Below are positions 22,643 to 42,300 of a DNA stretch of 64,000 nt, in pieces. The first letter of the stretch is position 1; every line of letters starts with the position of its first letter. Location: the NCBI RefSeq assembly GCF_002954405.1, contig NZ_MQWC01000005.1, positions 62,001 to 126,000 of the forward strand, written 5' to 3'. A program made the position numbers and the translations under genes. This stretch comes from Salinibacter sp. 10B. GTDB taxonomy: Bacteria > Bacteroidota > Rhodothermia > Rhodothermales > Salinibacteraceae. The notes below the pieces were generated by a model that saw only the letters and a program-made list of their open reading frames with translations, did no database searches and had not been told where the DNA came from.

Positions 22643-23323
22643 ATGCGACTCAATCTGACACTTTCTCCCAACACCGATCCGGTTCCGTTCAATCACCTGC
22701 ACAAGCTCACGGGCACGCTACACAAGTGGCTCGGGTCGGAGAACGACCTGCACGACGGGCCCAGCCTGTACAGCGTCGGCTGGCTGAAGGGCGGGCATGG
22801 GGAGGATGGAGCCCTGCAGTTTCCCGATGGCGTGCGCTGGCGTCTTAGCTTCTGGGAGGATGGGGCTGCGAAAACCGCATTGGAGGGCATTCTGCAGGAT
22901 CCATCGGTCTTTGCCGGAATGCGAGTCGTGGAGGCCCAGCAGCAGACGACGCCTGCGTTTTCAGGTGGCTACCGCTTCGACGTAGACGCGCCGGTCATTG
23001 CCCGCCAGCGCCGCGAGGATGGGAGCCGCGAGTACCTGATCCACGACGACGAGCGGGCCGACGATGCCCTCACCCGCACCCTGCGCGCCAAGATGAAGGC
23101 GGCCGGGCTCGACCTCGATCCGTCAGAGGCGCAGGTACGGTTCGATCGGGGGTACAAGGGAGCCGACACAAAACTCGCGACCATCGAAAAGGGGGGGCAT
23201 GAGATTGACCACAAGGGTAGCGTGTGTCCGGTGATCGTGGAGGGGCCGCCCGAGGTCTCACGCTTTGCCTGGAACGTGGGCGTAGGGGAGCTTACCGGAA
23301 GTGGGTTTGGTGCGCTGAAGTGA
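22643..23323 (+). CDS. cas6: CRISPR endoribonuclease Cas6
   Basis: This 226-residue RAMP protein cuts the pre-crRNA within each repeat. The N-terminal strand MRLNLTLSPNTDPVPFNHLH and HKLTGTLHKWLG supply the first ferredoxin fold; the His in that helix region is a candidate catalytic base. The C-terminal Gly-rich loop is VGVGELTGSGFGALK, typical of Cas6. It is the first cas gene, followed 42 bp later by cas5. Cleavage 8 nt before the repeat's 3' end would leave the handle ATTGAAAG. Confidence 0.9.
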   Translation: MRLNLTLSPNTDPVPFNHLHKLTGTLHKWLGSENDLHDGPSLYSVGWLKGGHGEDGALQFPDGVRWRLSFWEDGAAKTALEGILQDPSVFAGMRVVEAQQQTTPAFSGGYRFDVDAPVIARQRREDGSREYLIHDDERADDALTRTLRAKMKAAGLDLDPSEAQVRFDRGYKGADTKLATIEKGGHEIDHKGSVCPVIVEGPPEVSRFAWNVGVGELTGSGFGALK

Positions 23324-23365
23324 CGCCATCGCGATGAGCAACACACTTGAATAGATTCTACACCT

Positions 23366-24157
23366 ATGTCCAACTCACTCAACCTTTCTTTCTTTTTAGA
23401 GCCGCCAGACCTGGATACGACAGCACTCTTGGAGATTAGGGCGCTGTCGCCGTTGTCAATGACTGCCACCCAGCCGGGCACGTACTATCGCAGTCAACCA
23501 GCCCCAACTGAGGCTATGCTGTTTGGGCTGCTCGAAAACGCCCTGGGATGGCACTTCCCAGAGAAGGTGCGCTCCACCGTTTTGAAGAAACTGCGCTCGG
23601 AGGCGAAAAGCGAACTTGGGCGTGGGCATCCACAGAAAAAAGAGCCGTGGATCACGGGCGATGACGACTCGGAATCCGGATCCGGCTTCCTGAGTCTCCT
23701 CCAGCATCATCTTGAGTTTGAGATGTCGGTGTTGCCGGACACGGTACACTTCGATGATCTCTGGGCTCGGCATGCACGTGGGAGTGGGACGGAATTTCCA
23801 GGTGGAAGTCGTCACTACGACGTGCGACTCGAACGCGTGGTGAGTCTTGAGCGGAGCGATGACATCAAGTTTGGCGACTACTCCAGTTACAAGATCCGCG
23901 ACCCGGACGCTCTTCCGGATGTCGAAGAGGGGGACAAGGTGCACGTGAAGGCGCTTCGACCGCAGTATCCCCAATACTATACCAGCCCGACGCCCCGCGA
24001 GTACGTCATTCCGGAAGGACCGTACCGGTACCGCGTGCGCACGACAGAAACGCTGGCGACGCAAATCGAAGACGCGCTCGACGACCCGGCGGCCCCGCTC
24101 TATCTCGGGAATAACGACGGATGGGTGGAAGCCGAGTGGGAGGTGATGAACCAATGA
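23366..24157 (+). CDS. cas5: CRISPR-associated protein Cas5
   Basis: This 263-residue RAMP protein of the Cascade complex is expected to cap the 5' handle of the crRNA. The N-terminal core reads LEIRALSPLSMTATQPGTYY and PTEAMLFGLLENALGWHF, a Cas5 signature (P-T-x-x-x-x-G-x-L-x-x-x-L-G). The C-terminal half is acidic and rich in Tyr/Pro. Its stop overlaps the ATG of the next gene by 4 bp (24154-24157), indicating translational coupling with the large subunit. Confidence 0.85.
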   Translation: MSNSLNLSFFLEPPDLDTTALLEIRALSPLSMTATQPGTYYRSQPAPTEAMLFGLLENALGWHFPEKVRSTVLKKLRSEAKSELGRGHPQKKEPWITGDDDSESGSGFLSLLQHHLEFEMSVLPDTVHFDDLWARHARGSGTEFPGGSRHYDVRLERVVSLERSDDIKFGDYSSYKIRDPDALPDVEEGDKVHVKALRPQYPQYYTSPTPREYVIPEGPYRYRVRTTETLATQIEDALDDPAAPLYLGNNDGWVEAEWEVMNQ

Positions 24158-25728
24158 ATCAGACCACGACACCGATGAAACCCGACAAGACCGAGTCCCC
24201 GACTCTCGTTTTCGATCATCCTTATCCGCGCTACGGACTGGCCGCCGCACTCGTGCAAGTGGGCGTGGGGCGGGAGTGGAAAACACTGCTCGATCAGCCC
24301 GAAGCTCTTCTGGACGCAGCCCAGGTTGCGATTCGCGATGGTTTGCAACGCTTCCGTGTGCATACCAGCTGCGATTTGGACACGGACCGGGAGCTACAGT
24401 ATCGCTGGCTCTCGAACGAGGAGCTAGAAACTGGGGGTCAGAAAGCGGAGGACGGATATTACATTGCCCCGCATGTCGTGATCGACGATCGTAACTCGCG
24501 CTACCTGATCCGGGAGGCCCGATCTACGCTCGACGAACTTCAGAACGAGGAAGAGATCGATCCGCAGGCGTCGGTGAAGATGAAGCGCTCTTTTGCCCCG
24601 TTTACGTCGAAGCTAAATCAGGGGACGAAGACCCTCTCAGAACCGAAGTCTACAAAACTGGAGGCCGTATTCTCGCTGGTGGCGGCCCTCACATCCTTGA
24701 AGCCTGCCGCGCAGGTGGATTTCACCAACCAGGTGATGATTCCGGATCTGGATCTGGAGGGGATGATCCGGTTCGTTCGGCTTTTTCGAAGCATGAAGGA
24801 CAAGGAGACGGGCGAATTTTTGACCCTCAACCGATCGGAGGACAGCAATCGGAAACGTCCCCCGCTCTTCGAGGGCAACTACCCCGATGCCCCTGGCAGC
24901 AGCGCCTTCGGTCCGGTTGGGCTTATGGGGGCAATGGGGCAGTGGGCGAAGCGGGCCGGCCGGCTGGATGAAGCGCGTGACGTGCTAGACCAGATGGCCG
25001 GAAATCCGGTCTACCTCGTCAGCTACGATGGCGGGCTGATGCGACAGGAGTTCGTCGGACACCACGCGGCTCGGCTCGCCGAAGAGCAAGACCTTCCGGC
25101 CGTCATCGCCAGTTTGTATCGGATCCGGTTTTACAACGAAGACGACAATCGCCCGGACAGCACCAACCGGCAGAGCTTCTTCCGAATGGCGGGACGGTTT
25201 CTGCAGCTCTACACCCAGCCGGCCTTCTGCGATTTCCTTGCCTTTCGAGTCCAGTACGACCGTGTTTTCTCACCAATTCTAACCGACTACTTTATGAATA
25301 AGCAAGCCATCGACGCCGACATCGTGCAGTCCGCACGAGCGTACGGCGCGTACCTCAACGATGTCGCCTACCATATCGCCCGCCAGGAGGTGGAGGAAAA
25401 CGACGAGCAGGACGGCGGCGGCACGGGCCGAAATCTGTACGAGGCTAAGACGCGGGCGCTGGCGCAGCTTGAAAGCACCGCCATGAGCGCTCGCCGTCCG
25501 TCAGCTCTCTTCGCACAACTCAACGTCGACGCCGGGCGCCAGTCAAACCGCGACGTGCCCGCGGCGGCGGAGCGCTTCCTGGAGGCCACGAATGCGGGAG
25601 AAATCGACTTCGACACCGCGAAGGACCTCGTGCTGGCGTACATGCGACTCCGATCTGAAAATGGGTCTGAAAACGCGCAATCCGAGGACGACGATTCGGA
25701 CGATCCCTACATGGAGGACGGTGAGTAG
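24154..25728 (+). CDS. cas8: Type I-B Cascade large subunit, Cas8 (Cst1-like)
   Basis: This 524-residue protein is identified mainly by position between cas5 and a Cst2/DevR-type cas7, and by size. The N-terminus has LVFDHPYPRYGLAAALVQVG; the centre has MGAMGQWAKRAGRLDEARDV and LVSYDGGLMRQEFVGHHAAR. No clear zinc-finger Cys motif was seen. Cas8 subunits recognise the PAM and recruit Cas3. The start at 24154 (overlapping the cas5 stop) is preferred over 24121. Confidence 0.75.
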   Translation: MNQTTTPMKPDKTESPTLVFDHPYPRYGLAAALVQVGVGREWKTLLDQPEALLDAAQVAIRDGLQRFRVHTSCDLDTDRELQYRWLSNEELETGGQKAEDGYYIAPHVVIDDRNSRYLIREARSTLDELQNEEEIDPQASVKMKRSFAPFTSKLNQGTKTLSEPKSTKLEAVFSLVAALTSLKPAAQVDFTNQVMIPDLDLEGMIRFVRLFRSMKDKETGEFLTLNRSEDSNRKRPPLFEGNYPDAPGSSAFGPVGLMGAMGQWAKRAGRLDEARDVLDQMAGNPVYLVSYDGGLMRQEFVGHHAARLAEEQDLPAVIASLYRIRFYNEDDNRPDSTNRQSFFRMAGRFLQLYTQPAFCDFLAFRVQYDRVFSPILTDYFMNKQAIDADIVQSARAYGAYLNDVAYHIARQEVEENDEQDGGGTGRNLYEAKTRALAQLESTAMSARRPSALFAQLNVDAGRQSNRDVPAAAERFLEATNAGEIDFDTAKDLVLAYMRLRSENGSENAQSEDDDSDDPYMEDGE

Positions 25729-25793
25729 TCGGCAGCAGCACCGCACCTTTTCCTCTCTTTTTACTTCACTTGACGACACAACTTCTACCATTT

Positions 25794-26723
25794 ATGGAAA
25801 ACGTAAAAGGCATTTCCGTCACGCTTCTCTCACCGATGTCCAATCACACGGCCAACGGAGGAGAAAAACTCCTCGGCAACGCGTCGTCCATTAAGCGACG
25901 GCCCGACGGTCGGGTGTACATCTCCGGTCAAATGCAGCGACACGCGCTGTTCAGTGCGATCGAACGCCTCAATTTAGAGCACGACAACCGGGGCGACACC
26001 TACGTATCCAATGGCGACGGAACGACCAATCAGATCCAAAAGGATCTCCGTGCCGACATGGGCGGGTTCATGCACCCGTCGCAGGGCAGCTACTCGGGCC
26101 GCCGGACCGCGCCGGTGAGCGCGACGTTCGCCGTGGCCAAAGAGGAGAGCGACGTGGGACGCGACCTGCTCATCCGCATCAAGCAGAACACCAACGAAGA
26201 GTCCGAGCAGAAGCAGGCGCTTGCCACCAATGAGTTCAGTCAGGACGACGACATGCAGATGAGTTTCCATCTGGACGTGTCGGCCCTGTCGGTGAGCAAG
26301 GCGTTCACCTACGAAGAGGAGCGCCACGTCGAGACGAACTACGTAAAGCACGTTGACGAGGCTGAGCGGACACGCCGCGCAGAACTGTTTCTGGAGGCCA
26401 CTCGGTTTCTGAACGACTACGCCAACCAGGCCCGGAATGCGACCACTGGGGAGCCGCAGGAAGCGCTCATCGTGCTGGATTCCCGGCTGTCCCGAAAGGC
26501 ATCACGCTTCTTCGACATGAGCGAGGCGGAGCGGGAAAACCTCTTCGCGGAGCTCGATGCGCGAGATGCCAAGTACTTCTACGGCGACGATACCACCACC
26601 GACGGCAAGAGTGTGTTCGAGGCATACGATGCTGCGCTGGACGCCATCGACAGCCTTTACGATCCGACGGAGGGAGCCGAGCCGGTGCCCTTCAACGAGT
26701 TCGCTCAAAAGGCGGAGGCCTAA
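25794..26723 (+). CDS. cas7: Cas7 backbone subunit (Cst2/DevR family)
   Basis: The protein has 309 residues. The N-terminal VKGISVTLLSPMSNHTANGG, EKLLGNASSIKRRPDG and VYISGQMQRHALFSAIERL are hallmark Cas7/Cst2/DevR sequences. Cas7 polymerises along the crRNA spacer. The DevR branch has been reported as autoregulatory in Myxococcus. I chose ATG 25794 since the longer frame from 25770 adds eight residues without homology. cas3 starts 4 bp after its stop. Confidence 0.9.
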   Translation: MENVKGISVTLLSPMSNHTANGGEKLLGNASSIKRRPDGRVYISGQMQRHALFSAIERLNLEHDNRGDTYVSNGDGTTNQIQKDLRADMGGFMHPSQGSYSGRRTAPVSATFAVAKEESDVGRDLLIRIKQNTNEESEQKQALATNEFSQDDDMQMSFHLDVSALSVSKAFTYEEERHVETNYVKHVDEAERTRRAELFLEATRFLNDYANQARNATTGEPQEALIVLDSRLSRKASRFFDMSEAERENLFAELDARDAKYFYGDDTTTDGKSVFEAYDAALDAIDSLYDPTEGAEPVPFNEFAQKAEA

Positions 26724-26726
26724 CCG

Positions 26727-28997
26727 ATGAACCCGATTCTTGCCAAAACCAACGGCATCACGCTGGAGGAGCACACGCGACATGTCGTTGAGCAGGCCCG
26801 GGCGTGGCTCGATGCGTTTCCGTTTCTGGAATCGAAATATCAAGAGCGAACGGGAGCGGCGCTTCGCCCTCAGCTTCTGAAAGCGGCCGAGGTGCACGAT
26901 CAGGGCAAGCGCCACTCCACATGGCAGACGGCCTGTCGCAAAGATGCGAAGGAAGGCGGCTCGCGGCACCTGATGACGGCAGACCTACGTCACGAGTTCG
27001 CGTCGCTCGATTATGCGGACACGAGGGGAATTGACCTGACACTGCCGGAGCGTGCCGCAATTGCCGCTCACCACGGAAAGCTGAGCTACGACCGGCGGGC
27101 ACGGAAGCGGTGGAAGAACGACGGCGAAGGACAGTTCGAATATCTGTGGGATGAGTTTTGCGAAGAGGATGGTCGGTGGACAATAGATCCACCGCCCAAT
27201 CTCGCAGAGAAAGCCTTGAACGAGCGGTTTCGTATCGCCGGGGTTCGGTCGCTTCTCCGCCTTGCCGACACGCGGGCGAGCATTCAGGAGAAAGAGTCCC
27301 AGAACTGGGTGCCTGATCCCGAAGAGCTCCAGTTCGCGTACGAGTTTCCGTATGACTCTCCGCGCGGAGTCCAGGAGGTCGTTACAGAGGCGACTGAGGA
27401 CGATGGTCGGGACGACACCGCCATGATTCTGCGGGCCCCGACGGGGAGCGGAAAAACCGACGCGTCACTCCTCTGGGCGCAGCATCAAATCAATGCCGGA
27501 AAGGCCGACCGGTGCGTCATTGCCATGCCCACGCGGTTTACGTCCAACTCATTGTCGGTGGACGTGGACGAAAACGTGAGCAAGACGGGGCTCTACCACT
27601 CCAGCGCGTGGCACGCCCGGTACGGGGAAGGAGTGGGGGAGGAAGACGAGGATGCCCGTCACCGTGCCGGGGAGATGCACCGGATGGCGCGGCTGTTGGC
27701 GACGCCCGTCACGGTGTGTACGATCGACCATCTCTGTGCGGCGCTCACCGGCACGCGAGAGGATCACTTTGCCATCTTCTACCACCTGTGCAACAGCTGC
27801 GTGGTGATCGACGAGGCGGACTTCTACGATCCTTTCGTGCAGGCGAATCTTGAGGTACTGCTCCACGTGCTGCGCCACTTCGACGTGCCGGTACTGGTCA
27901 TGAGTGCGACCGTGCCCGACGCCGCCAAAGACTTCTACAACATCGGCACACTGGAGGAAGACACGTCGGATTTAGACCGCACGCGCTGTTACATCAAAGA
28001 CGCGGGTGAGGCGGACGAGCCTGATGAAATCGTAGACGTGCTTCGACCGATTGCCCGCCAGGACCCCCCCACGGCCATTTTGTACGCCAACACCGTGAAG
28101 AGGGCGCTGGCGTACTACGACTGGTTTCGAGACAATACCGACGTTGAGCCCATTCTGTACCACTCTCGTTTTACGGAGCCGGGCAAGAAAGGTGTGGAGC
28201 AGAACCTGCTCGACGCGTTGGGACAGGAGGCCTGGGATGAAGGGACTGCAGAAGGGGTGGCAGTGCTCACCCAGATCGGCGAAATGAGCTTGAACATTAG
28301 CGCGCCGGTGATGGTGAGCGAACTCTGCCCGTACGACCGCTTGGCCCAGCGTGCCGGACGGCTGGGGCGATTTGAGGGCATGGACGTGGGCACGCTCCAC
28401 GTCGTGACGCCGACGAAGGAGGGCAACCTGTATCCGGCCCCGTACGGTGAGTTTGATCAGGACGAGTACGAGTGGCATCCAGGACGAGCCCTCGTTCAGA
28501 CGCGGGAAGCCCTTCAGTTCGAGCCGCACTCGGCGCGAGACTTTATCGATGCGGTGGACGAACTCTATCCCAATGCAGAGTCCTTTTCACCCTCAGACGA
28601 CCGCATCAAGACCAACCGCAAGCGACTCGTGCAACACTTGAAGGATGATTGGCTCATCGTAAGTGCCCGTCACTCCGACGAAGAAACCGAGTCCACGGAT
28701 GATTGGCTCAGCCGGGATATTCCATCGCAAGCAACCGTTCTTACGGCCTGTCCCGATCGGTTCGACACATACTCCGAGTATCGGGCCTTCGAACAGGAGT
28801 ACGGAGTGTCGGTCCCTATGTATCATGTGCAGCGGGACGACCGGGAGCAGCGTCCGGATCTGCCACCGGTTCAGAAAGTGGCCGTCGAAGTGGCTGACGA
28901 AACAGAAGAGGCCTGGTATTCTCCGGCGTACTCCCCAACAGAAGGCCTTATACTCGATCAAAAACGAGGGCGCTCGATGAACGACCGATGTTTGTAG
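26727..28997 (+). CDS. cas3: CRISPR helicase-nuclease Cas3 (HD-helicase fusion)
   Basis: This 756-residue protein has an N-terminal HD nuclease domain, AAEVHDQGKRHSTWQ (HD at residues ~57-58) and AAIAAHHGKLSYD. The superfamily 2 helicase follows with Walker A LRAPTGSGKTDASLLWA (~residue 237), Walker B VVIDEADFYDP (~residue 360), motif III VLVMSATVP and motif VI YDRLAQRAGRLGRFEG. All expected catalytic motifs are present. It is recruited by Cascade to degrade target DNA. Its stop is followed directly by the leader of array 1. Confidence 0.93.
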   Translation: MNPILAKTNGITLEEHTRHVVEQARAWLDAFPFLESKYQERTGAALRPQLLKAAEVHDQGKRHSTWQTACRKDAKEGGSRHLMTADLRHEFASLDYADTRGIDLTLPERAAIAAHHGKLSYDRRARKRWKNDGEGQFEYLWDEFCEEDGRWTIDPPPNLAEKALNERFRIAGVRSLLRLADTRASIQEKESQNWVPDPEELQFAYEFPYDSPRGVQEVVTEATEDDGRDDTAMILRAPTGSGKTDASLLWAQHQINAGKADRCVIAMPTRFTSNSLSVDVDENVSKTGLYHSSAWHARYGEGVGEEDEDARHRAGEMHRMARLLATPVTVCTIDHLCAALTGTREDHFAIFYHLCNSCVVIDEADFYDPFVQANLEVLLHVLRHFDVPVLVMSATVPDAAKDFYNIGTLEEDTSDLDRTRCYIKDAGEADEPDEIVDVLRPIARQDPPTAILYANTVKRALAYYDWFRDNTDVEPILYHSRFTEPGKKGVEQNLLDALGQEAWDEGTAEGVAVLTQIGEMSLNISAPVMVSELCPYDRLAQRAGRLGRFEGMDVGTLHVVTPTKEGNLYPAPYGEFDQDEYEWHPGRALVQTREALQFEPHSARDFIDAVDELYPNAESFSPSDDRIKTNRKRLVQHLKDDWLIVSARHSDEETESTDDWLSRDIPSQATVLTACPDRFDTYSEYRAFEQEYGVSVPMYHVQRDDREQRPDLPPVQKVAVEVADETEEAWYSPAYSPTEGLILDQKRGRSMNDRCL

Positions 28998-29229
28998 GGT
29001 GGCATAATCTCGTCGCCCTCCCTGCTCAAGAATAACTAAGCACCGATTCATTCGCCTATTATCACTGATGATTATGGGTAAACCATTGAACAACAAAACG
29101 ATAGAGGTGGTCGTCACCCTCCCCGGGGTTGACACAGAACCGCGGGGTGACGACTTTAGAAACGCCCAAATGGCTATCACAGCGGCCCTCAGCGTCGCTC
29201 AAGAGGCATTTATGAGGGCGAGAGGTTAG
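28998..29229 (+). promoter_or_regulatory. Leader of CRISPR array 1
   Basis: This is 232 bp between the cas3 stop and the first repeat. It carries TCGTCGCCCTCCC at 29010-29022 and TCGTCACCCTCCC at 29111-29123, the second ending 106 bp before repeat 1. The array 2 leader has the same motif twice with the same spacing. The downstream copy starts a dyad: GTCGTCACCC (29110-29119) and GGGTGACGAC (29145-29154). After it, CCCGGGG, ACCGCGGGG and ACGAC blocks are also shared between the leaders. It should contain the promoter and the integration anchor. Confidence 0.75.
29068..29229 (+). CDS. Possible 53-residue ORF inside leader 1
   Basis: ATG 29068 begins MIMGKPLNNKTIEVVVTLPG and the frame ends in TAAL...AQEAFMRARG with TAG at 29227-29229, one base before repeat 1. 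The C-terminal half would form an amphipathic helix. The other leader shares DNA motifs but not this reading frame, so the ORF may be accidental. Listed because the frame is protein-like and exactly abuts the array. Confidence 0.25.
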   Translation: MIMGKPLNNKTIEVVVTLPGVDTEPRGDDFRNAQMAITAALSVAQEAFMRARG

Positions 29230-30519
29230 CTTCGAATCGGACCTATGAGGTATTGAAAGTTCTCGCGCCTCTTCTGCGGCACACTGCGGATGCTCCTTCG
29301 AATCGGACCTATGAGGTATTGAAAGAATCGCGACGTTGATCATCCGCCTCAGCGTCCGCATCTTCGAATCGGACCTATGAGGTATTGAAAGAAGCAGCTT
29401 TCCTTCATCAAGCGGCTGAATCGGGCGCCTTCGAATCGGACCTATGAGGTATTGAAAGATCCGAAGCCTGCCCCCGATCCGGATTCCTCGACCGGCTTCG
29501 AATCGGACCTATGAGGTATTGAAAGGAGGAGATCATCGTTGAAGCTGATGAACGATCCACGCCTTCGAATCGGACCTATGAGGTATTGAAAGGCCGAGAC
29601 CTGGGACGCGATCGAGAAAGAAATCGAAACTTCGAATCGGACCTATGAGGTATTGAAAGTGAGGCCGCGCGTGATCGGATGCGTGAGATGGGTGTTCTTC
29701 GAATCGGACCTATGAGGTATTGAAAGAGCTGACCCCCCACAGGTGAAGCAGTCCACTTATGCTTCGAATCGGACCTATGAGGTATTGAAAGTCATCATAG
29801 GTAATGCCTGCACGAGTGTCCAGCGCGGCTTCGAATCGGACCTATGAGGTATTGAAAGGATCTTCCATCGGCAGTGGCAGCGCGTGAGGCACTTCTTCGA
29901 ATCGGACCTATGAGGTATTGAAAGTCGTACGAACGCTTGTCTTGGTCTCCAGCCTGATCCACTTCGAATCGGACCTATGAGGTATTGAAAGATAATCTGA
30001 TCCGAAAATGTCAGCAGCAAGGTGAAGCTTCGAATCGGACCTATGAGGTATTGAAAGCATCTTTGACCCCCGCCGCCGCTGCTACTCTGTGAGGCTTCGA
30101 ATCGGACCTATGAGGTATTGAAAGGCGGGCTGTGGATTATCGCCTGGGCCATCGGGCTGACTTCGAATCGGACCTATGAGGTATTGAAAGCGCAACCCCG
30201 CGATAAAATCCTCCCGCGCCTCCTGCTTCGAATCGGACCTATGAGGTATTGAAAGCCTCTCTTCGGCACAAAGAGGACGGCACCGACGTGACTTCGAATC
30301 GGACCTATGAGGTATTGAAAGTTGGTCGAGGCCACCAGGCCCACCATCGAAGACATCCTTCGAATCGGACCTATGAGGTATTGAAAGTACAGCGTCGGTT
30401 CGTGAGGAGTGTCCGCGCCGCACCTTCGAATCGGACCTATGAGGTATTGAAAGTATTCTGATCGGGGATATCGACGAGATCCGGGTCAACTTCGAATCGC
30501 ACCTATGAGGTATCGAAAG
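29230..30519 (+). CRISPR. CRISPR array 1: 20 repeats, 19 spacers
   Basis: Repeats are 30 bp, starting CTTCGAATCGGACC and ending GAGGTATTGAAAG; spacers are 35-37 bp. The first 19 repeats are identical. The last, 30490-30519, has two changes (G to C at position 11, T to C at position 25), as expected at the leader-distal end. That, and the 3' ATTGAAAG that forms the I-B-type crRNA handle, set the direction as plus. Repeat starts are 29230, 29296, 29362, 29429, 29496, 29563, 29630, 29697, 29762, 29829, 29895, 29962, 30028, 30095, 30161, 30226, 30292, 30358, 30424 and 30490. No duplicated spacer was noticed. Confidence 0.97.
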
Positions 30520-30654
30520 CCAGACGATCCTGGACGCGAAATGTCCGGGGTCGGAAGGGAGCGTTTGTAGACTATGGGTGTGTCGGCCGGGACGCGAAAC
30601 GAAGCGGCCCACTCGGCACACCCGTTGTCTGTTGGATCGATCCTCTGTCGGCGC

Positions 30655-31224
30655 ATGTCCGCTCCCAATTCTGCTCCGCCTCGTTCCTCGTTTCGCGTGG
30701 GAGGAATGCTCGTCGGCTACTACGTGCTCTGCCCGCGCAAGGCCTGGCTCTCGATGCGGGGCCTGTGGATGGAGCAGGAGTCGACCACCGTCGCGCTTGG
30801 GCGGCAGATCGATGAGAACAGCTACGAGCGAGAGCAAAAGGAGATCATGCTCACGGCTGAAGCGCCGAACGGCACGCCCCTCATTGGCAAAGTCGACTGG
30901 GCTCGGCTCGACGCCGGCGTCCTCCACGAAACCAAAAAGAGCCCCTCTGCTGAGGAGGCCCACAAGTGGCAACTCCGGTTTTACCTGTGGCTTCTCGCCC
31001 TAAACGAGGTGACAGGACCGCAGGGCGAGCCGTTTGCCGGCGAGCTCAACTACCCGAAGCAGCGCCGCACCGAAGACGTCCGTCTTACAAACGCCCACAC
31101 CGAGCGCTTGCAGGAGATTGTCCAGTCGCTTCAAGCGCTCTCGCGCCAGAAGTCTCCGCCCCCGCGGCGAGAGGAGCGCTCGTTCTGCCAAAAGTGTGCA
31201 TTCGAGGAGCTTTGTTACGGGTGA
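30655..31224 (+). CDS. cas4: CRISPR-associated exonuclease Cas4
   Basis: The protein has 189 residues from ATG 30655. Cas4 trims prespacers and helps select the PAM. YYVLCPRKAWLSMRG carries the first iron-sulfur Cys; CQKCAFEELCYG at the C-terminus carries the other three. The nuclease core is seen in LIGKVDWARLDAG (D) and HETKKSPSAEEAHKWQLRFY (E-x-K and QxxxY). The longer frame from 30574 would begin in unrelated sequence after array 1. It opens the adaptation module with cas1 and cas2. Confidence 0.92.
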   Translation: MSAPNSAPPRSSFRVGGMLVGYYVLCPRKAWLSMRGLWMEQESTTVALGRQIDENSYEREQKEIMLTAEAPNGTPLIGKVDWARLDAGVLHETKKSPSAEEAHKWQLRFYLWLLALNEVTGPQGEPFAGELNYPKQRRTEDVRLTNAHTERLQEIVQSLQALSRQKSPPPRREERSFCQKCAFEELCYG

Positions 31225-31299
31225 GCACCGGGACCGGGTCAGATGCTGCGTCCCAACCTTTCTTTCGTGATTTCAGTTCAAGACCATTCTCCCTTTCCT

Positions 31300-32568
31300 A
31301 TGAAGCGCCCGTACTACCTCTTTTCCAACGGTCGGCTTTGCCGCAATCAAAACACACTCTGTCTTGAACGAGCGACCGACGCCCGCTCTCCCGGGGCCGA
31401 GGTGGCGGGGGACCGGCTTCCTTTGAGTGAGATTCCACACCGAATCAATCCGGAATCGCCGACAGGGGGCGACGGGGCTCCGCAAGGCCAATCGGACCCG
31501 GCCGAAGAACCAGTCGCCACTGGAGCGGGACGGCAGAGAGACGAGGACGCCGCTTCCCAGGAAGAGTCTGGGGCAGTCAGCAACTCATTGACCTCCGACG
31601 ACGGCCAACCCAGTGGAGAATTAACCGGCGAGTCGATTCCATTTCCGATCGAGAGCGCCGAGTCAATCTACTGCTTCGGGGAAATTGACGTCAACTCGAA
31701 GCTGGTGAGCTTCCTCTCGAAGCACCACGTTCCACTTTTCTTTTTCGACTACTACGGCAACTACACCGCCAGCCTCTACCCGAAGGAGCACCTCTTAAGC
31801 GGACGCCTTACCGTCGAGCAGGTACGCCACCACACCAACCAGGAGAGGCGCCTGCGCCTGGCGCGCTCGTTTGTGGAGGCGGCCCTGGCCAACATTCGCC
31901 GCGTGCTTCGCTACTACGCTTCGCGCCTGGAGGAGGGCACCGAAGGGATCGAGGAGGCAATCAGAAAGATCGAGTCGATCAAAAAACGGGCTCAGGAGGC
32001 CGAGGGCCCGGCCACGCTTATGGGACTGGAGGGCCAGGCCCGGCGGCGGTACTACCGGACTTGGCCAACGCTCCTGGGCGGGGCCGGCGAAAACTTCTCC
32101 TTCGAACGGCGCAGCCGACAGCCGCCCTCCAACCCGCTCAATGCCCTGATCAGCTTCGGAAACAGCCTTTGCTACAGCGTGGCACTTCGCCAGCTCTATC
32201 ACACGGCTCTCGACCCGACGGTCTCCTATCTTCACGAACCGGGGGACCGGCGGTTTTCCCTTGCCCTCGACCTGGCAGAGGTTTTCAAGCCGCTTCTGGT
32301 CGACCGGGCAATCTTCCGCCTCGTCAAGACACGTCAGATCCAACCCGACGATTTTGAGGAGCGTCTCGGGGGAGTGTACCTCACCGAAAGCGGGCGCAAG
32401 ACCTTCGTAGAACACTGGGACGAGCGCCTGCGCCAGACGATTGAGCACCGGCGCCTCGAACGTAAAATTAGCTACGAGCGCCTCGTGCGTCTCGACGCCT
32501 ATCGCCTCACGCGTCACCTTTGTGCTCCGGAGGACGACCCGTACGAAGGGTTCGAGATGTGGTGGTAA
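31300..32568 (+). CDS. cas1: CRISPR integrase Cas1 with an 88-residue insertion
   Basis: The protein has 422 residues from ATG 31300; the I-B family is usually about 330. The N-terminus MKRPYYLFSNGRLCRNQNTL and the later ESIYCFGEIDVNSKLVSFLS are normal Cas1. Between them, residues ~25-112, lies a hydrophilic stretch rich in Gly, Pro, Ser, Asp, Glu and Gln with no hydrophobic core. Catalytic residues are present: Glu244 in GLEGQARRRYY, His312 in YLHEPGDRRF, Asp324/Glu327 in ALDLAEVFKP. The reading frame through the insertion is intact. It joins spacers into the leader end of the arrays with Cas2. Confidence 0.93.
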   Translation: MKRPYYLFSNGRLCRNQNTLCLERATDARSPGAEVAGDRLPLSEIPHRINPESPTGGDGAPQGQSDPAEEPVATGAGRQRDEDAASQEESGAVSNSLTSDDGQPSGELTGESIPFPIESAESIYCFGEIDVNSKLVSFLSKHHVPLFFFDYYGNYTASLYPKEHLLSGRLTVEQVRHHTNQERRLRLARSFVEAALANIRRVLRYYASRLEEGTEGIEEAIRKIESIKKRAQEAEGPATLMGLEGQARRRYYRTWPTLLGGAGENFSFERRSRQPPSNPLNALISFGNSLCYSVALRQLYHTALDPTVSYLHEPGDRRFSLALDLAEVFKPLLVDRAIFRLVKTRQIQPDDFEERLGGVYLTESGRKTFVEHWDERLRQTIEHRRLERKISYERLVRLDAYRLTRHLCAPEDDPYEGFEMWW

Positions 32569-32632
32569 TCTTCTGAGTCTGGGCGTCCGGACGGGCTGTC
32601 GCTTTCTCTTTACATCGACACGGGAGCAACCT

Positions 32633-32896
32633 ATGTACTTCGTAGCGGCCTACGACGTCGACGAACGGCGGGTCGGAAAGATGCTTAAGATCTTTCGGCG
32701 CTACCTGACCTGGGTGCAGAATTCGGTCTTTGAGGGGGAGCTGACCGAAGCGCAATTTGCCGAGCTCAAAGCGGAAGCAGAGGCGTTGATGGACCCGGCC
32801 ACCGATTCGGTAATCTTCTGGAACCTGCAGGCCCAGAAGTATTGCGATCGCGAGACGTTGGGCCAAGAGCGGGGAACGACGGGCCGGATGCTATAA
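32633..32896 (+). CDS. cas2: CRISPR-associated protein Cas2
   Basis: An 87-residue protein that bridges Cas1 dimers. It begins MYFVAAYDVDERRVGKMLKI (ferredoxin strand with the conserved Asp) and continues FRRYLTWVQNSVFEGELTEA, matching Cas2. The start at 32633 is preceded by GGGAGCAACCT. The longer frame from 32441 lies in cas1 and is not used. The gene ends 255 bp before array 2. Confidence 0.93.
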   Translation: MYFVAAYDVDERRVGKMLKIFRRYLTWVQNSVFEGELTEAQFAELKAEAEALMDPATDSVIFWNLQAQKYCDRETLGQERGTTGRML

Positions 32897-33151
32897 CCCA
32901 GCGCCTATGACCAGGCGTTCCCGAACGGCGTTCTCGTCACCCTCCCGATCGACCTACTGGGAGAAGGCTTCTGATTCTTAGTCGAGAAATTCTGTTCTAT
33001 ATAAGATACTGAATAGCAATGATTTACGAAGTCTCGTCACCCTCCCGGAGAGAATGCATTACCGACGGGGGACGACAATTGGGGCGGCTTAGACGTCCCG
33101 ATGCCCGCCTGCATTTGCGCTCACGGCCGTTTTTTGGCAATTTGAGGCAGC
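32897..33151 (+). promoter_or_regulatory. Leader of CRISPR array 2
   Basis: TCGTCACCCTCCC occurs at 32934-32946 and 33034-33046, exactly 100 bp apart, the second ending 105 bp before the first repeat. ACCGACGGGGGACGAC (from 33060) is shared with ACCGCGGGGTGACGAC in leader 1. The sequence between and around these blocks has diverged, so the motifs stand out as conserved. GTTTTTTGGCAATTTGAGGCAG lies next to repeat 1 and is A/T-richer than its surroundings. Confidence 0.75.
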
Positions 33152-34839
33152 CTTCGAATCGGACCTATGAGGTATTGAAAGAGCGGCCTTACGGCCTATC
33201 GTTTCGCAAAGAGCGCGGCTTCGAATCGGACCTATGAGGTATTGAAAGCCGAGCGATCCGATCACCGATCCCGTGCAGATCACCTTCGAATCGGACCTAT
33301 GAGGTATTGAAAGAAGGCGTGAGTATTGCCGACGACGGCGAACTGCTCACTTCGAATCGGACCTATGAGGTATTGAAAGTCGAACCCAAGTCGGATATTG
33401 GGTTGAATTTCGCAGACTTCGAATCGGACCTATGAGGTATTGAAAGGGGCCACGGAGGGCGATCTCGAAAAGGTGGAGGAGTCCTTCGAATCGGACCTAT
33501 GAGGTATTGAAAGAACAGGAGGGAGGTCGGGGTCATCAAAGCGAACCTTCTTCGAATCGGACCTATGAGGTATTGAAAGACCATTCACTACGCGGAGTAC
33601 GTCCACGAGGGCACGACTTCGAATCGGACCTATGAGGTATTGAAAGAGGACCTCTCCGGCTCGACCGAGACGGTCACGACGACTTCGAATCGGACCTATG
33701 AGGTATTGAAAGTGGGTGGCGATGGCAGGGTGACTTCAGGCATGGCCTCCTTCGAATCGGACCTATGAGGTATTGAAAGAAGTCGCAGGTAAGGAGGTTG
33801 AGGGCGAGGGCCAGGCTTCGAATCGGACCTATGAGGTATTGAAAGAGAATACTGACCCCTACTGGAACGGTGTCTGGGACTGCTTCGAATCGGACCTATG
33901 AGGTATTGAAAGTTGTGCCATACGATCCAGATGATTAACGAAGAGACTGCTTCGAATCGGACCTATGAGGTATTGAAAGGGCGCCGTCCTTGGCCCCTTC
34001 CAGGTCCGCGGCGAGGCTTCGAATCGGACCTATGAGGTATTGAAAGTGAAGTGATGCGGGAAACCCACCGCGTGCTCGATGCTTCGAATCGGACCTATGA
34101 GGTATTGAAAGTTCTTCAGGATCTGCACGTCCGTGATGATGTCGGACTTCGAATCGGACCTATGAGGTATTGAAAGGTGGCGAAAAGCGGCTGTTCTTCC
34201 ATCCAGACGGTGTCTTCGAATCGGACCTATGAGGTATTGAAAGGGCCCGCCACCCACTGCCCAAAATCCGCCCTGAACGCTTCGAATCGGACCTATGAGG
34301 TATTGAAAGTCGCCTGCCCGTCAGCGTATTTCATGGCAGTAATTCTTCGAATCGGACCTATGAGGTATTGAAAGTGGCGTCCGAATATCGGCGCACCGGC
34401 CGGGAGTTTGCCTTCGAATCGGACCTATGAGGTATTGAAAGCACGTCCCCGTCGCGGTAGGCGTCGAAAAGCTCAAACTTCGAATCGGACCTATGAGGTA
34501 TTGAAAGCGAGTTGCGGGAGGTGGCCTATGGCTAAACTCATTTCCTTCGAATCGGACCTATGAGGTATTGAAAGAATGCCGTCGGCCATCGACTCAGGAG
34601 GGCGTTCACCTTCGAATCGGACCTATGAGGTATTGAAAGAGACAGCTTCTCGACTGGATGGACCGGGTCAGGCTGGCTTCGAATCGGACCTATGAGGTAT
34701 TGAAAGCTACCCGCATTTCTCCGTGAGTGGCATCGAGGGGCGACTTCGAATCGGACCTATGAGGTATTGAAAGTGGCCCCCGGCGCGGAGATCAGCATCT
34801 CACGAGCGACTTCGAATCGGACCTATGAGGTATTGAAAG
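33152..34839 (+). CRISPR. CRISPR array 2: 26 repeats, 25 spacers
   Basis: The same 30-bp repeat as array 1, same strand, spacers 35-37 bp. Repeat starts are 33152, 33219, 33284, 33350, 33417, 33484, 33550, 33617, 33683, 33750, 33816, 33883, 33950, 34017, 34082, 34147, 34214, 34280, 34345, 34412, 34478, 34545, 34610, 34677, 34744 and 34810. All copies, including the last, match the consensus. The distal end has no degenerate repeat; it runs straight into a headless ATPase coding sequence, so the old trailer is missing. Confidence 0.97.
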
Positions 34840-35486
34840 GCATCCTCAGCAACGAGGTCCGCGTAGAACGACGGAGAGCGCTCAAAAGCGAACTCGACAA
34901 GGTGCAGGGCCGCCTCGAAAGCGACGACCTCCGCGGCCTACACGGCCGCCTTGAAGAGGCGCGGCAGGACCTGGAAGAGGCGCAGGCCGAGGTAGACCGG
35001 CTCCAGCAGCAGGCCGAGGCCGCAAAGCTTCTCTACGAGACGCTCACAGAAAAGCGAAGGGAGGCCCGCCGCCAGTATCTCGCGCCTCTCCGAGAGGAAG
35101 TTGAAGAACTGCTCAGCCGATTCTTCGGGGCCGACCGCGCCACCGTGCAGTTTGGGGAGACCTTCGGCGTCGAGCGGTTTAGCCGTTCGGGGGAGGGGAG
35201 CTTTGAATTTGACCAGCTCAGCGCCGGGGCGAAGCAGCAACTGAGCGTCCTCACGCGCCTGGCCATGGCCCGCCTCATCTGCCAGGAGCGTCCCCATCCG
35301 GTGTTTTTGGACGACGCGCTCTCAGACACCGATCCCGATCGATTTGAGGCGATTGCCAACATCCTCCGGAGCGTCGCCCGCGAGATGCAAATCATCATGA
35401 CCACCTGCCACCACGAACGGCACCGGCGCCTGGGGGTGACGACGAAGCGGATGGAGTCCTTGAAGCAGCAGGCCGTAGGAGAATAA
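34840..35486 (+). pseudogene. C-terminal fragment of an SMC/YhaN-like AAA ATPase
   Basis: The frame has about 215 residues: a long coiled coil (RRALKSELDKVQGRLESDDL to VDRLQQQAEAAKLLYETL), then the ABC signature region FDQLSAGAKQQLSVLTRLAM, Walker B with HPVFLDDALSDTDPDRF, and the H-loop IIMTTCHHERHR. The N-terminal half with Walker A is absent. The frame enters from the last CRISPR repeat without a start of its own; the ATG at 34767 is inside the array. Such Rad50-like ATPases are often parts of defence or repair loci. A deletion or recombination has fused the array to it. Confidence 0.75.
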
Positions 35487-39320: not shown

Positions 39321-42300
39321 ATGCAAACAAGTGCCTTTCTGAGAGCCACTATATCTCTTCTCACGTGCATGCTTGTAATTTCTCAAGCATCCGTCTTCGG
39401 GCAAGAGCCTTTAGTCGAGCAACAGGTTCTAAAAGACTTGAAAGGAGAGGACCTAGAGGATCGAGACGGTCCATTTGCGAATCTAGGGTACGACCTTACC
39501 CGTTTGTACCGGTCGTATCAGCAGTTTGAACAGAGGAAAACCGAAGCCGCGTCCTTCAAGCCCAGGTCGTCTTACATCCCCGTTCGGGGAGAGATGGTTA
39601 CGGTTGACTTTCTGGCCCGACGAGGAGAGGCAGAAATGCTTGAAGAGGCGCTCCGCTCACTGAACGGTCAAAGCCTTGCACGAGAGGGTCGCCTCGTTTC
39701 TGTGCGTCTTCCCATAGGTGCACTTTCAGAAGCTGCTCGTCTGGAGTCCTTACACTCGGCTAGGCCCGCCTGGGCGGTCTCTTCCTCTGGAGAGGTTACA
39801 ACTCAGGGCGATTCCGCAATGAAAGCAGACGACGCCCGATCCGAGAGTGGGTTCGAAGGAGGAGACGTGAAGGTCGGCGTTCTTTCTGACAGCTACAACC
39901 AAAGTGGTGCCTCCAGGACAGCCCAGGACGATATCGACAGTGGTGATCTCCCACCTTCGGGCCGGATCGACATCCTGGACGACACTGAGCCTGGGGACGA
40001 TGAAGGCCGGGCGATGATGCAAATCATCCATGACATAGCTCCTGGAGCCGACCTTGCTTTCCACACCGCTTCTGGAGGACAAGCAAACTTCGCTCAAGGC
40101 ATCCGTGACCTGGAAAATGCTGGCAGTTCGGTGATCACCGACGACATCTATTATTTTGCAGAACCGATGTTTCAGGATGGGGTAATTGCCGAGGCGGTCG
40201 AGGACGTGAGTAAGGACGGCGTGGCTTACTTCTCAGCGGCGGGCAACAGGGCTCGACAATCTCATACCCAAAGCTTTTCCTCTTCGGGCTCTTCTGGGCC
40301 AAACGGGGGGACCCTTCATGACTTCGGAGGTGGAGATACTCGCCAACAGGTTTCGATTCCAACAGGAGAGGAGATCTGGTTTTCATTTCAGTGGGTAGAC
40401 CCGTATGCCTCGGTCTCCAGCTCAGGGGTGGGTGCAGATACTGATCTCAACATCTATCTTGTAGACCAAGCGGACAGCATAGTAGCCCGAAGCGAAATCG
40501 ACAATATCGGCGGCGACCCTATCGAGGTGATCACATTTGAAAACGACGGGTCTATTGACGCCGACGGAGACGGCTCAGCCGATACACAGTTCGACCTCCA
40601 GATTGAACTGTCTGAGGGTCCAGCGCCAGACCGTATGACTTACATTTACGGGGGAGGGGACCTCTCAATCGACGAGTATCAAAATCCTGGCCCTTCTACC
40701 TTTGGCCACTACAACGCGGAAGGCAGCCACAGCGTGGCGGCTGCCGCTTATTTCAACACGCCTGAATTTGGTACGGATCCGCCCCAGGTGAATTCCTTCT
40801 CTTCGGAGGGTGGGGTTCCGATCTACTTCGACGACGACGGGAATCGCCTTAGCTCGCAGGAGGTCCGGCAGGTACCGGACGTTACGGGCCCGGACGGAGG
40901 GAATAATACTTTCTTTGGGTCCGACAGCGACGCGGATTCAGACAACTACCCGAATTTCTTCGGCACCTCGGCCGCAGCCCCACATGTGGCAGGCGCCGCG
41001 GCCCTAATGCTTTCGAAGAATCCCGGTCTTCAACCCAGCGAGATATACTCGAAGTTGGAGGATACGGCCATCGACATGGACGACCCGGCGACCTCTGGCT
41101 TCGACGATGGGTACGACCGCCGGACAGGCTACGGTCTTATTCAGGCCGACCAGGCGCTGAGCCAAGTCACCGAAGAGACTCCGCCAACAGCCCCAACCGG
41201 ATTGACGGCAAGTGCAGGTGATCAGGAGGTGAGTCTCTCTTGGGACGCAAACAGCGAAAATGATCTCGCCGGATATAACCTCTACCGTTCAACTTCTTCG
41301 TTTACCGATCCAACAAGCGCCACACAGGTCAACGGATCGCTGCTGACAAGCACCAGCTACACGGACTCAGGCCTGTCCAACGGCACGACATACTACTACC
41401 GCCTCACGGCCGTCGATGAGGCTGGAGCAGAAAGCACGCCATCCGGAGAGGCGAGTGCAACACCCAGCGCCACGACCCGGCCTGCGGTGTCGTTCGTCCG
41501 GTCGGAGTTAGATTTGGACGAGGGACCCGACGCGGTATGGGGAGACTACGATGGCGACGGGGACCTCGATCTCTTCGTGTGCTGCAGTACCCTCTACCGG
41601 AACGATGGCCGATGGAACTTCACGAAAGTCAATGCAGGAATTCGAGACTTTCCAGCAATTATTGACGATCAGGTTATGGGCTCGGCCGATTGGGGAGACT
41701 TCAATGGAGACGGTCGCCTGGACCTGGTCATCGCCGGTTACGAAACGGGAACCAGCGGCACCGCGGAGATTTATCGGAATGATGGAGACACTGACGGGGA
41801 TGGAACCGTCGAGTTCTCTAAGGTGAACGCAGGTCTCAATGACCTCAGTAGGGGCGGGGATATACCGAAACTATCTCCCGAAGCTGGAGGCCTCAAACGC
41901 ACCACCTCACAGTGGGGGGACTACAACAATGATGGTAGGCTCGACCTGATCGTCACGGGTGGCCCGACAAGTGTGTATCGAAACGATGGGGACGGTAATT
42001 TTACGGATATAGACGCTGGGGTAGCAAATGTAAGCTGGGGAAGTTCTCAGTGGGGTGACTATGATGGTGACGGCGATCTAGATCTGGTAGTTTCCGGCCG
42101 CAATGAAGGTGTGCACATATATAAGAATGAGGGAGGTGGGCAATTTGTTGACATCAATGCCGATGTGAAAGATTACACTTTCGGTTTTACAAAGTGGGCA
42201 GATTACGACAATGACGGTGACCTCGATCTAGCAGCTGGAGGATCCGAAGGGATGGGTATTTACGAGAACGAAGGTAGCGATACGTTTCAGAGAGAAAAAC

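What the first reader, a model, noticed from the sequence alone, without database searches (positions are those of the whole stretch)
28998..33151. Both CRISPR leaders carry the same 13-bp motif twice at a fixed 100-bp spacing
TCGTC(A/G)CCCTCCC occurs at 29010 and 29111 in leader 1 and at 32934 and 33034 in leader 2. Spacing is 101 and 100 bp, and the downstream copy ends 106 and 105 bp before the first repeat. A second shared block (ACCG.GGGG..ACGAC) follows in both, while the rest has diverged. In leader 1 the downstream copy is one arm of a perfect 10-bp dyad. Such register conservation suggests a protein (IHF-like bender, Cas1-Cas2 or a regulator) that loops or anchors the leader, with sites about ten helical turns apart. 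This differs from the single upstream anchoring motif described for other type I systems.
Basis: seen in the sequence. Interest (0 to 1): 0.75.

Follow-up and report, generated by a model that had tools for sequence, protein, structure and literature searches.

The report
Three-site docking module in CRISPR leaders
Upstream of both CRISPR arrays lie three copies of one short DNA word at fixed distances; the same layout recurs in bacteria of other phyla, moves mostly in steps of about one DNA turn and is found only at CRISPR leaders, so it is most likely the landing pad that tells the cell where to insert new immune memories.

Summary
Both leaders carry TCGTC(A/G)CCCTCCC twice, 101 and 100 bp apart. 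In 74 distinct type I-B leaders from relatives of this Cas1 (mostly Bacteroidota, some Acidobacteriota and others), B occurs in 69, B' in 66 and A in 63. B-B' is 32-33 bp in 65 of 66. B sits 118-124 or 108-111 bp before the repeat, with at least six switches on the Cas1 tree. A-B distances cluster near 78, 88, 100 and 110. All 46 dyads in 1.01 Mb of cas loci lie at leaders (six at contig ends where an array would begin) and none at cas promoters. Most Clostridium leaders of this clade carry the mirror image: dyad at -180, reversed centre, third site at -55. I read this as a DNA-folding docking module for the spacer-integration complex, related in kind to the type I-F leader inverted repeats. 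That step is inferred; which protein binds was not tested. New variant of a known kind.

The parts
29009..29022 (+). half-site A of leader 1 (TCGTCGCCCTCCC)
   Evidence: A at -221 from repeat 1, 101 bp before B
29110..29123 (+). half-site B of leader 1, left arm of the dyad (GTCGTCACCCTCCC)
   Evidence: position -120; perfect 10-bp inverted arm downstream
29144..29154 (-). half-site B' of leader 1, right (inverted) arm GGGGTGACGAC
29230..30519 (+). CRISPR array 1, 30-bp repeat CTTCGAATCGGACCTATGAGGTATTGAAAG, last repeat degenerate
32933..32946 (+). half-site A of leader 2 (TCGTCACCCTCCC)
   Evidence: -219 from repeat 1, 100 bp before B
33014..33026 (+). IHF-like 13-mer TAGCAATGATTTA (one mismatch to WATCAANNNNTTR) 19 bp before B; same offset recurs in other leaders; no equivalent in leader 1
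   Evidence: consensus match only
33033..33046 (+). half-site B of leader 2, left arm of the dyad
   Evidence: position -119
33067..33076 (-). half-site B' of leader 2, inverted arm GGGGGACGAC (8 of 10 matched to B)
33152..34839 (+). CRISPR array 2, same repeat
22643..28997 (+). cas6, cas5p, cas8c/csp2, cas7/csp1, cas3: type I-B (PGING branch) effector genes; cas6, cas7 and cas3 domains over cut-off, cas5p and cas8 below it
   Evidence: NCBIfam
30574..32896 (+). cas4, cas1, cas2 (adaptation genes) between the two arrays
   Evidence: NCBIfam

Best explanation
The leader carries a three-half-site, double-stranded DNA module (consensus half-site GTYGTCRNCC): a dyad B/B' whose arms start 32-33 bp apart, and a third copy A about 8-10 helical turns away. 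One protein most likely reads all three. I propose it is the spacer-integration complex (Cas1-Cas2, perhaps with Cas4) or a partner that docks it. The leader would be folded, probably by an IHF/HU-type protein between B' and the repeat and again between B and A, so that the two dyad arms and then A contact the complex sitting on the first repeat and mark that repeat as the insertion site. Shown here: the anatomy, its conservation, the fixed registers, exclusivity to leaders, the joint drift of the three sites with Cas1 divergence, and a mirror-image version in Clostridium. Inferred: which protein binds, that folding occurs, and that the output is spacer insertion.
For: B in 69, B' in 66 and A in 63 of 74 distinct leaders. 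B-B' start distance 32 or 33 in 65 of 66. B lies 118-124 or 108-111 bp from the first repeat, with at least six changes between the two registers on the Cas1 tree, plus two arrays at 97. A distance fixed to the insertion point is what an integration complex needs and what a transcription factor does not. A-B distances cluster at 78, 86-90, 96-103 and 105-110. Dyads occur only at arrays: 46 of 46 in 1.01 Mb of cas loci, six of these at contig ends 75-186 bp before the array would begin; in 394 Bacteroidota genomes a strict pattern gave nine sites with the conserved centre, eight 97-120 bp from an array and one at a contig end, and four without it and without an array. Orphan arrays keep the module: L009 in G340, three in G309, so it belongs to the array, not to the cas operon. 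A, B and B' stay 60-62% alike at variable columns within a leader, whereas cross-leader similarity falls to 36-37% as Cas1 diverges. IHF-like 13-mers are enriched at B-19/-20 (19 against 2.9+-1.8) and between B' and the repeat, mostly at -43 (23 against 8.7+-2.9). The genome has three HU/IHF-family genes. Type I-F precedent: Cas2 contacts leader inverted repeats with IHF folding (PMC12259127), and motif phase rather than distance is reported as critical (PMC9602844, citing earlier work).
Against: No binding or acquisition data. Window leader 1 shows no IHF-like site at these offsets. After controlling for relatedness, A is closer to its own B than to the nearest relative's B only 24:17, so coevolution beyond shared descent is weak. 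The step between registers fits 10-12 bp equally well, and A-B values of 96-97 and 105-107 blur the quantisation.
Confidence: 0.65

Rival explanations
1. Operator of a transcription regulator that loops between A and B/B' and controls the array promoter.
For: Three half-sites with one pair inverted and a third about 100 bp away is a classic repression-loop layout. In L111-L115 a TTGACA-N17-TATAAT promoter begins about 10 bp after B' (sequences).
Against: The distance held constant is that to the first repeat, while recognisable promoter elements vary between leaders. No dyad lies at a cas promoter in 1.01 Mb, and none away from an array in 394 genomes except four chance-like hits. No recognisable sigma-70 promoter was found in either window leader.
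Confidence: 0.2
2. RNA element: hairpin or intrinsic terminator at the end of the cas operon, or a folded 5' end of the pre-crRNA.
For: B/B' can pair, and in many Cytophagales a T-run follows the right arm. A boxA-like CTTTGACAT, expected in transcribed leaders, lies between A and B in many Bacteroidales.
Against: Does not explain A or the fixed distance to the repeat. The T-run is absent in the window and several other leaders. Orphan arrays keep the element. In L111-L115 the strong promoter lies downstream of B', so the dyad would not be in that transcript.
Confidence: 0.07
3. Shared ancestry only: the two window leaders are recent duplicates and the rest is drift.
For: The arrays share one repeat, and the best local match between the leaders is this dyad.
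Against: The same anatomy persists in leaders from other phyla whose intervening sequence is not alignable, and a mirror image exists in Clostridium.
Confidence: 0.02

Closest known systems
Type I-F CRISPR leader with IHF sites and inverted repeat motifs contacted by Cas2 (PMC12259127 and work cited there)
   Same: inverted half-sites in the leader; folding by a bender; contact sites on both sides of a C2-symmetric integrase; phase reported to matter (PMC9602844)
   Different: different sequence; here a third direct half-site about 100 bp upstream, B/B' about 80-120 bp from the repeat, IHF-like sites only statistical, and Cas4-Cas1-Cas2 instead of Cas1-Cas2/3
Clostridioides difficile type I-B leaders with two conserved inverted repeat motifs (PMC8406132)
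   Same: same subtype, multiple inverted motifs upstream of every array, function unknown
   Different: in Clostridiaceae leaders with that repeat type (L293-L305) the pairs read TTTGCAGTAAACC/GGTTTACTGCAAA and the dyad described here was not found; identity with the published motifs was not checked because the supplement could not be read
Type I-E leader with an IHF site and one upstream Cas1-contact motif (own knowledge; the Curr Biol 2021 survey is not held)
   Same: phase-dependent upstream motif that anchors the integrase
   Different: single motif close to the repeat; here three half-sites spanning 220 bp
CRISPR J 2025 catalogue of leader motifs (Buyukyoruk et al., cited in PMC12259127 and PMC12814883; not readable here)
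   Same: may already list the half-site as a subtype motif
   Different: whether the three-site layout, the register steps or the mirror image are reported there could not be checked

Membership tests
Type I-B CRISPR-Cas locus | cas6-cas8-cas7-cas5-cas3-cas4-cas1-cas2 with I-B Cas1 | tested here: met
   Cas6, Cas7/Csp1, Cas3 domains, Cas4, Cas1b and Cas2 over cut-off; Cas5p and Csp2 hit below cut-off (PGING branch)
IHF/phase-dependent leader docking module (I-E/I-F kind) | conserved upstream motif at a fixed phase to the leader-repeat junction | tested here: met
IHF/phase-dependent leader docking module (I-E/I-F kind) | bender site between motif and repeat | tested here: inconclusive
   IHF-like consensus enriched in -75..-15, mostly at -43, but absent from both window leaders there
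IHF/phase-dependent leader docking module (I-E/I-F kind) | contact with Cas1-Cas2 and effect on spacer uptake | not testable with these tools
   needs footprinting and acquisition assays
Type I-F leader inverted repeats | inverted repeat pair in the leader | tested here: met
   sequence homology to I-F motifs was not tested, and this is not claimed as a member
C. difficile I-B leader motifs | same sequence motif | tested here: not met
   no such dyad in L293-L302, L304, L305
Intrinsic terminator | GC hairpin followed by a T-run on the transcribed strand | tested here: not met
   for the two window leaders; T-runs do follow in some relatives
Operator of a cas regulator | copies at cas promoters | tested here: not met
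   46 of 46 dyads at leaders, none elsewhere in the loci

The most novel reading that the evidence does not exclude
A three-half-site leader module (dyad plus a third site about nine helical turns away) that works in either orientation: Bacteroidota and Acidobacteriota have single-then-dyad, Clostridium has the reverse complement, dyad-then-single at about the same internal distance (about 90 bp). This would mean that a two-fold symmetric integrase reads a folded DNA shape rather than a directional sequence.
Probability: 0.35. Interest if true: 0.75.

Novelty: new variant of a known kind. Interest (0 to 1): 0.57.

Why it matters
How type I-B integrases, which in many hosts work with Cas4, find the first repeat is little studied compared with I-E and I-F. 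A conserved module with defined registers gives direct tests (5-bp against 11-bp insertions, mutation of A, B or B'), a way to call leaders and array orientation in type I-B, where prediction tools often disagree (PMC12638026), and a natural mirror-image variant that separates sequence direction from geometry.

Tried and rejected
Terminator and promoter scan of the window leaders: nothing on the sense strand at the dyad. Strict dyad pattern in viral contigs: chance matches only, none next to an array in 80 loci. Cas1 N-terminal extension as a reader of the motif: the extra residues are an insertion private to the window's Cas1, absent from relatives that have the same motif, so dropped. Simple Rayleigh test for period 10.5 on all distances: dominated by one mode and uninformative; replaced by counting register changes on the tree, which gives the steps but does not pin the period. 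The most relevant surveys (Curr Biol 2021, CRISPR J 2025, the eLife boxA paper, the I-D leader paper) are not held.

Full report
Check. The four copies stand at 29010, 29111, 32934 and 33034, with spacings 101 and 100 bp and ends 106 and 105 bp from repeat 1. Six exact 13-mers exist in the 4.75 Mb genome, four of them here. Self-matches of this quality never arose in 300 dinucleotide shuffles of either leader. Each leader therefore holds A (direct), B (direct) and B' (inverted). The best local alignment of the two leaders is exactly the 44-bp B-B' element.

Surroundings. The locus is a type I-B (PGING branch) system: cas6, cas5p, csp2, csp1, cas3, array 1, cas4, cas1, cas2, array 2. The last repeat of array 1 is degenerate, consistent with the leader being at the left of the array.

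Relatives. Cas1 relatives were fetched from 80 contigs of species genomes and from 245 genomes of the same class; arrays and leaders were extracted by script. A half-site PWM (GTYGTCRNCC) was initialised from the motif and refined on the leaders. It finds B in 69, B' in 66 and A in 63 of 74 distinct leaders from Rhodothermia, Cytophagales, Bacteroidales, Chitinophagales, Acidobacteriota and a few others. A few A calls at odd distances (124, 136) are probably spurious. Forward hits concentrate at -225..-205 and -125..-105 and reverse hits at -90..-76, with few elsewhere.

Register. B-B' is 32 or 33 in 65 of 66. B to repeat is 118-124 (51 leaders) or 108-111 (15), none in between. Two arrays of G188 have 97 and one array of G005 has 108. 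On a Cas1 tree of 71 rows the 120/109 register changes at least six times, and the A-B class (about 78, 88, 100, 110) at least six times. The shifts are about one turn (10-12 bp); the data do not fix the period more tightly. A-B values of 96-97 and 105-107 exist, so the A-B quantisation is real but not perfect.

Specificity. In 1.01 Mb of loci that mostly include the cas operons, all 46 PWM dyads with the right spacing are at leaders, six of them at contig ends 75-186 bp before the array would begin, and none at a cas promoter. A strict dyad pattern in 394 Bacteroidota genomes gives nine sites with the conserved AT-rich centre: eight have an array 97-120 bp away and one lies at a contig end. 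Four further sites lack the centre and any array; the reversed control pattern gave 16 chance hits in all. Orphan arrays (G340, three in G309) keep the module.

Reader protein. At variable columns A, B and B' are 60-62% identical within a leader. Across leaders the figure falls from 56% (Cas1 over 70% identical) to 36-37% (Cas1 40-50%), so the sites drift together. Against the nearest relative the excess is small (24:17 and 21:12), so most of this is clade-level. IHF-like 13-mers cluster at B-19/-20 and -43 (19 against 2.9+-1.8 and 23 against 8.7+-2.9); the same two offsets score highest in a position-by-position scan anchored on B and on the repeat. The genome has three HU/IHF-family genes. 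Window leader 2 has such a site at B-19 with one mismatch; leader 1 has none.

Mirror image. In Clostridiaceae with a related Cas1 the 44-bp dyad lies near -180. Its asymmetric centre scores higher in the reverse orientation in 10 of 11 leaders, whereas it scores higher forward in 50 of 50 leave-one-out tests in the other phyla. An inverted third half-site sits at -53 to -55 in 8 of 9 leaders of the main group. Read from the other strand, its distance to the dyad is about 90 bp, the same as one of the A-B classes. The whole module thus appears reverse-complemented relative to the array. L303, L307 and L134 have a reversed dyad near -150 without a detectable third site. C. difficile-type leaders have other inverted pairs.

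Mechanism. A fixed distance to the insertion point, absence from cas promoters, persistence at orphan arrays and helical steps argue for a docking module of the integration complex. In type I-F, Cas2 contacts leader inverted repeats with IHF folding (PMC12259127), and phase rather than distance of leader motifs is reported to matter (PMC9602844). I propose that the dyad arms contact the two-fold symmetric complex on the first repeat after one fold, and that A is reached by a second fold. All protein assignments are inferred. The transcription-loop rival is not excluded.

Novelty. Leader motifs with phase and inverted repeats are a known kind, and I-B inverted motifs are known in C. difficile (PMC8406132). 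The three-site layout, its spread over phyla, the register steps and the mirror image were not found in the papers that could be read, but two key surveys could not be read.

Noticed in passing
L063-L074, L085-L096, L103-L105 leaders, B-33 to B-35: A boxA-like CTTTGACAT (resembles the rRNA antitermination boxA) lies at a fixed offset before B in 19 leaders (26 leaders hold it somewhere, 0.6 expected).
   Followed up: partly
L063-L074, L087, L091, L103-L105 at -12; L053, L077, L088 at -16: A fourth half-site (usually GTCGTCGAACGG) abuts the first repeat in Bacteroidales and a few others; it usually keeps TCGTC where A and B have TTGTC.
   Followed up: partly
window 31243-32568: Cas1 carries a low-complexity insertion of roughly 70 residues in its N-terminal part that is absent from the relatives aligned.
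   Followed up: partly
L009 (G340) and L144, L151, L154 (G309): Arrays with the module in genomes where no close Cas1 was found: orphan arrays or more diverged adaptation genes.
   Followed up: no
L111, L113, L114, L115 leaders, about -65 to -35: Strong TTGACA-N17-TATAAT-like promoter starting about 10 bp after B'.
   Followed up: no
L293-L302, L304, L305 leaders: C. difficile-type repeats have another leader pair, TTTGCAGTAAACC ... GGTTTACTGCAAA, about 100 bp apart, and in several a second pair around TTGATATTACTAG.
   Followed up: no
window 34767-35486: ORF at the trailer end of array 2 (its listed start lies inside the last repeats) with weak matches to SMC/Rad50-type ATPases.
   Followed up: no
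window 41537-42584: Seven degenerate 43-nt repeats inside a 1588-aa ORF, reading like DxDxDGDxD calcium-binding (FG-GAP/VCBS-type) repeats.
   Followed up: no
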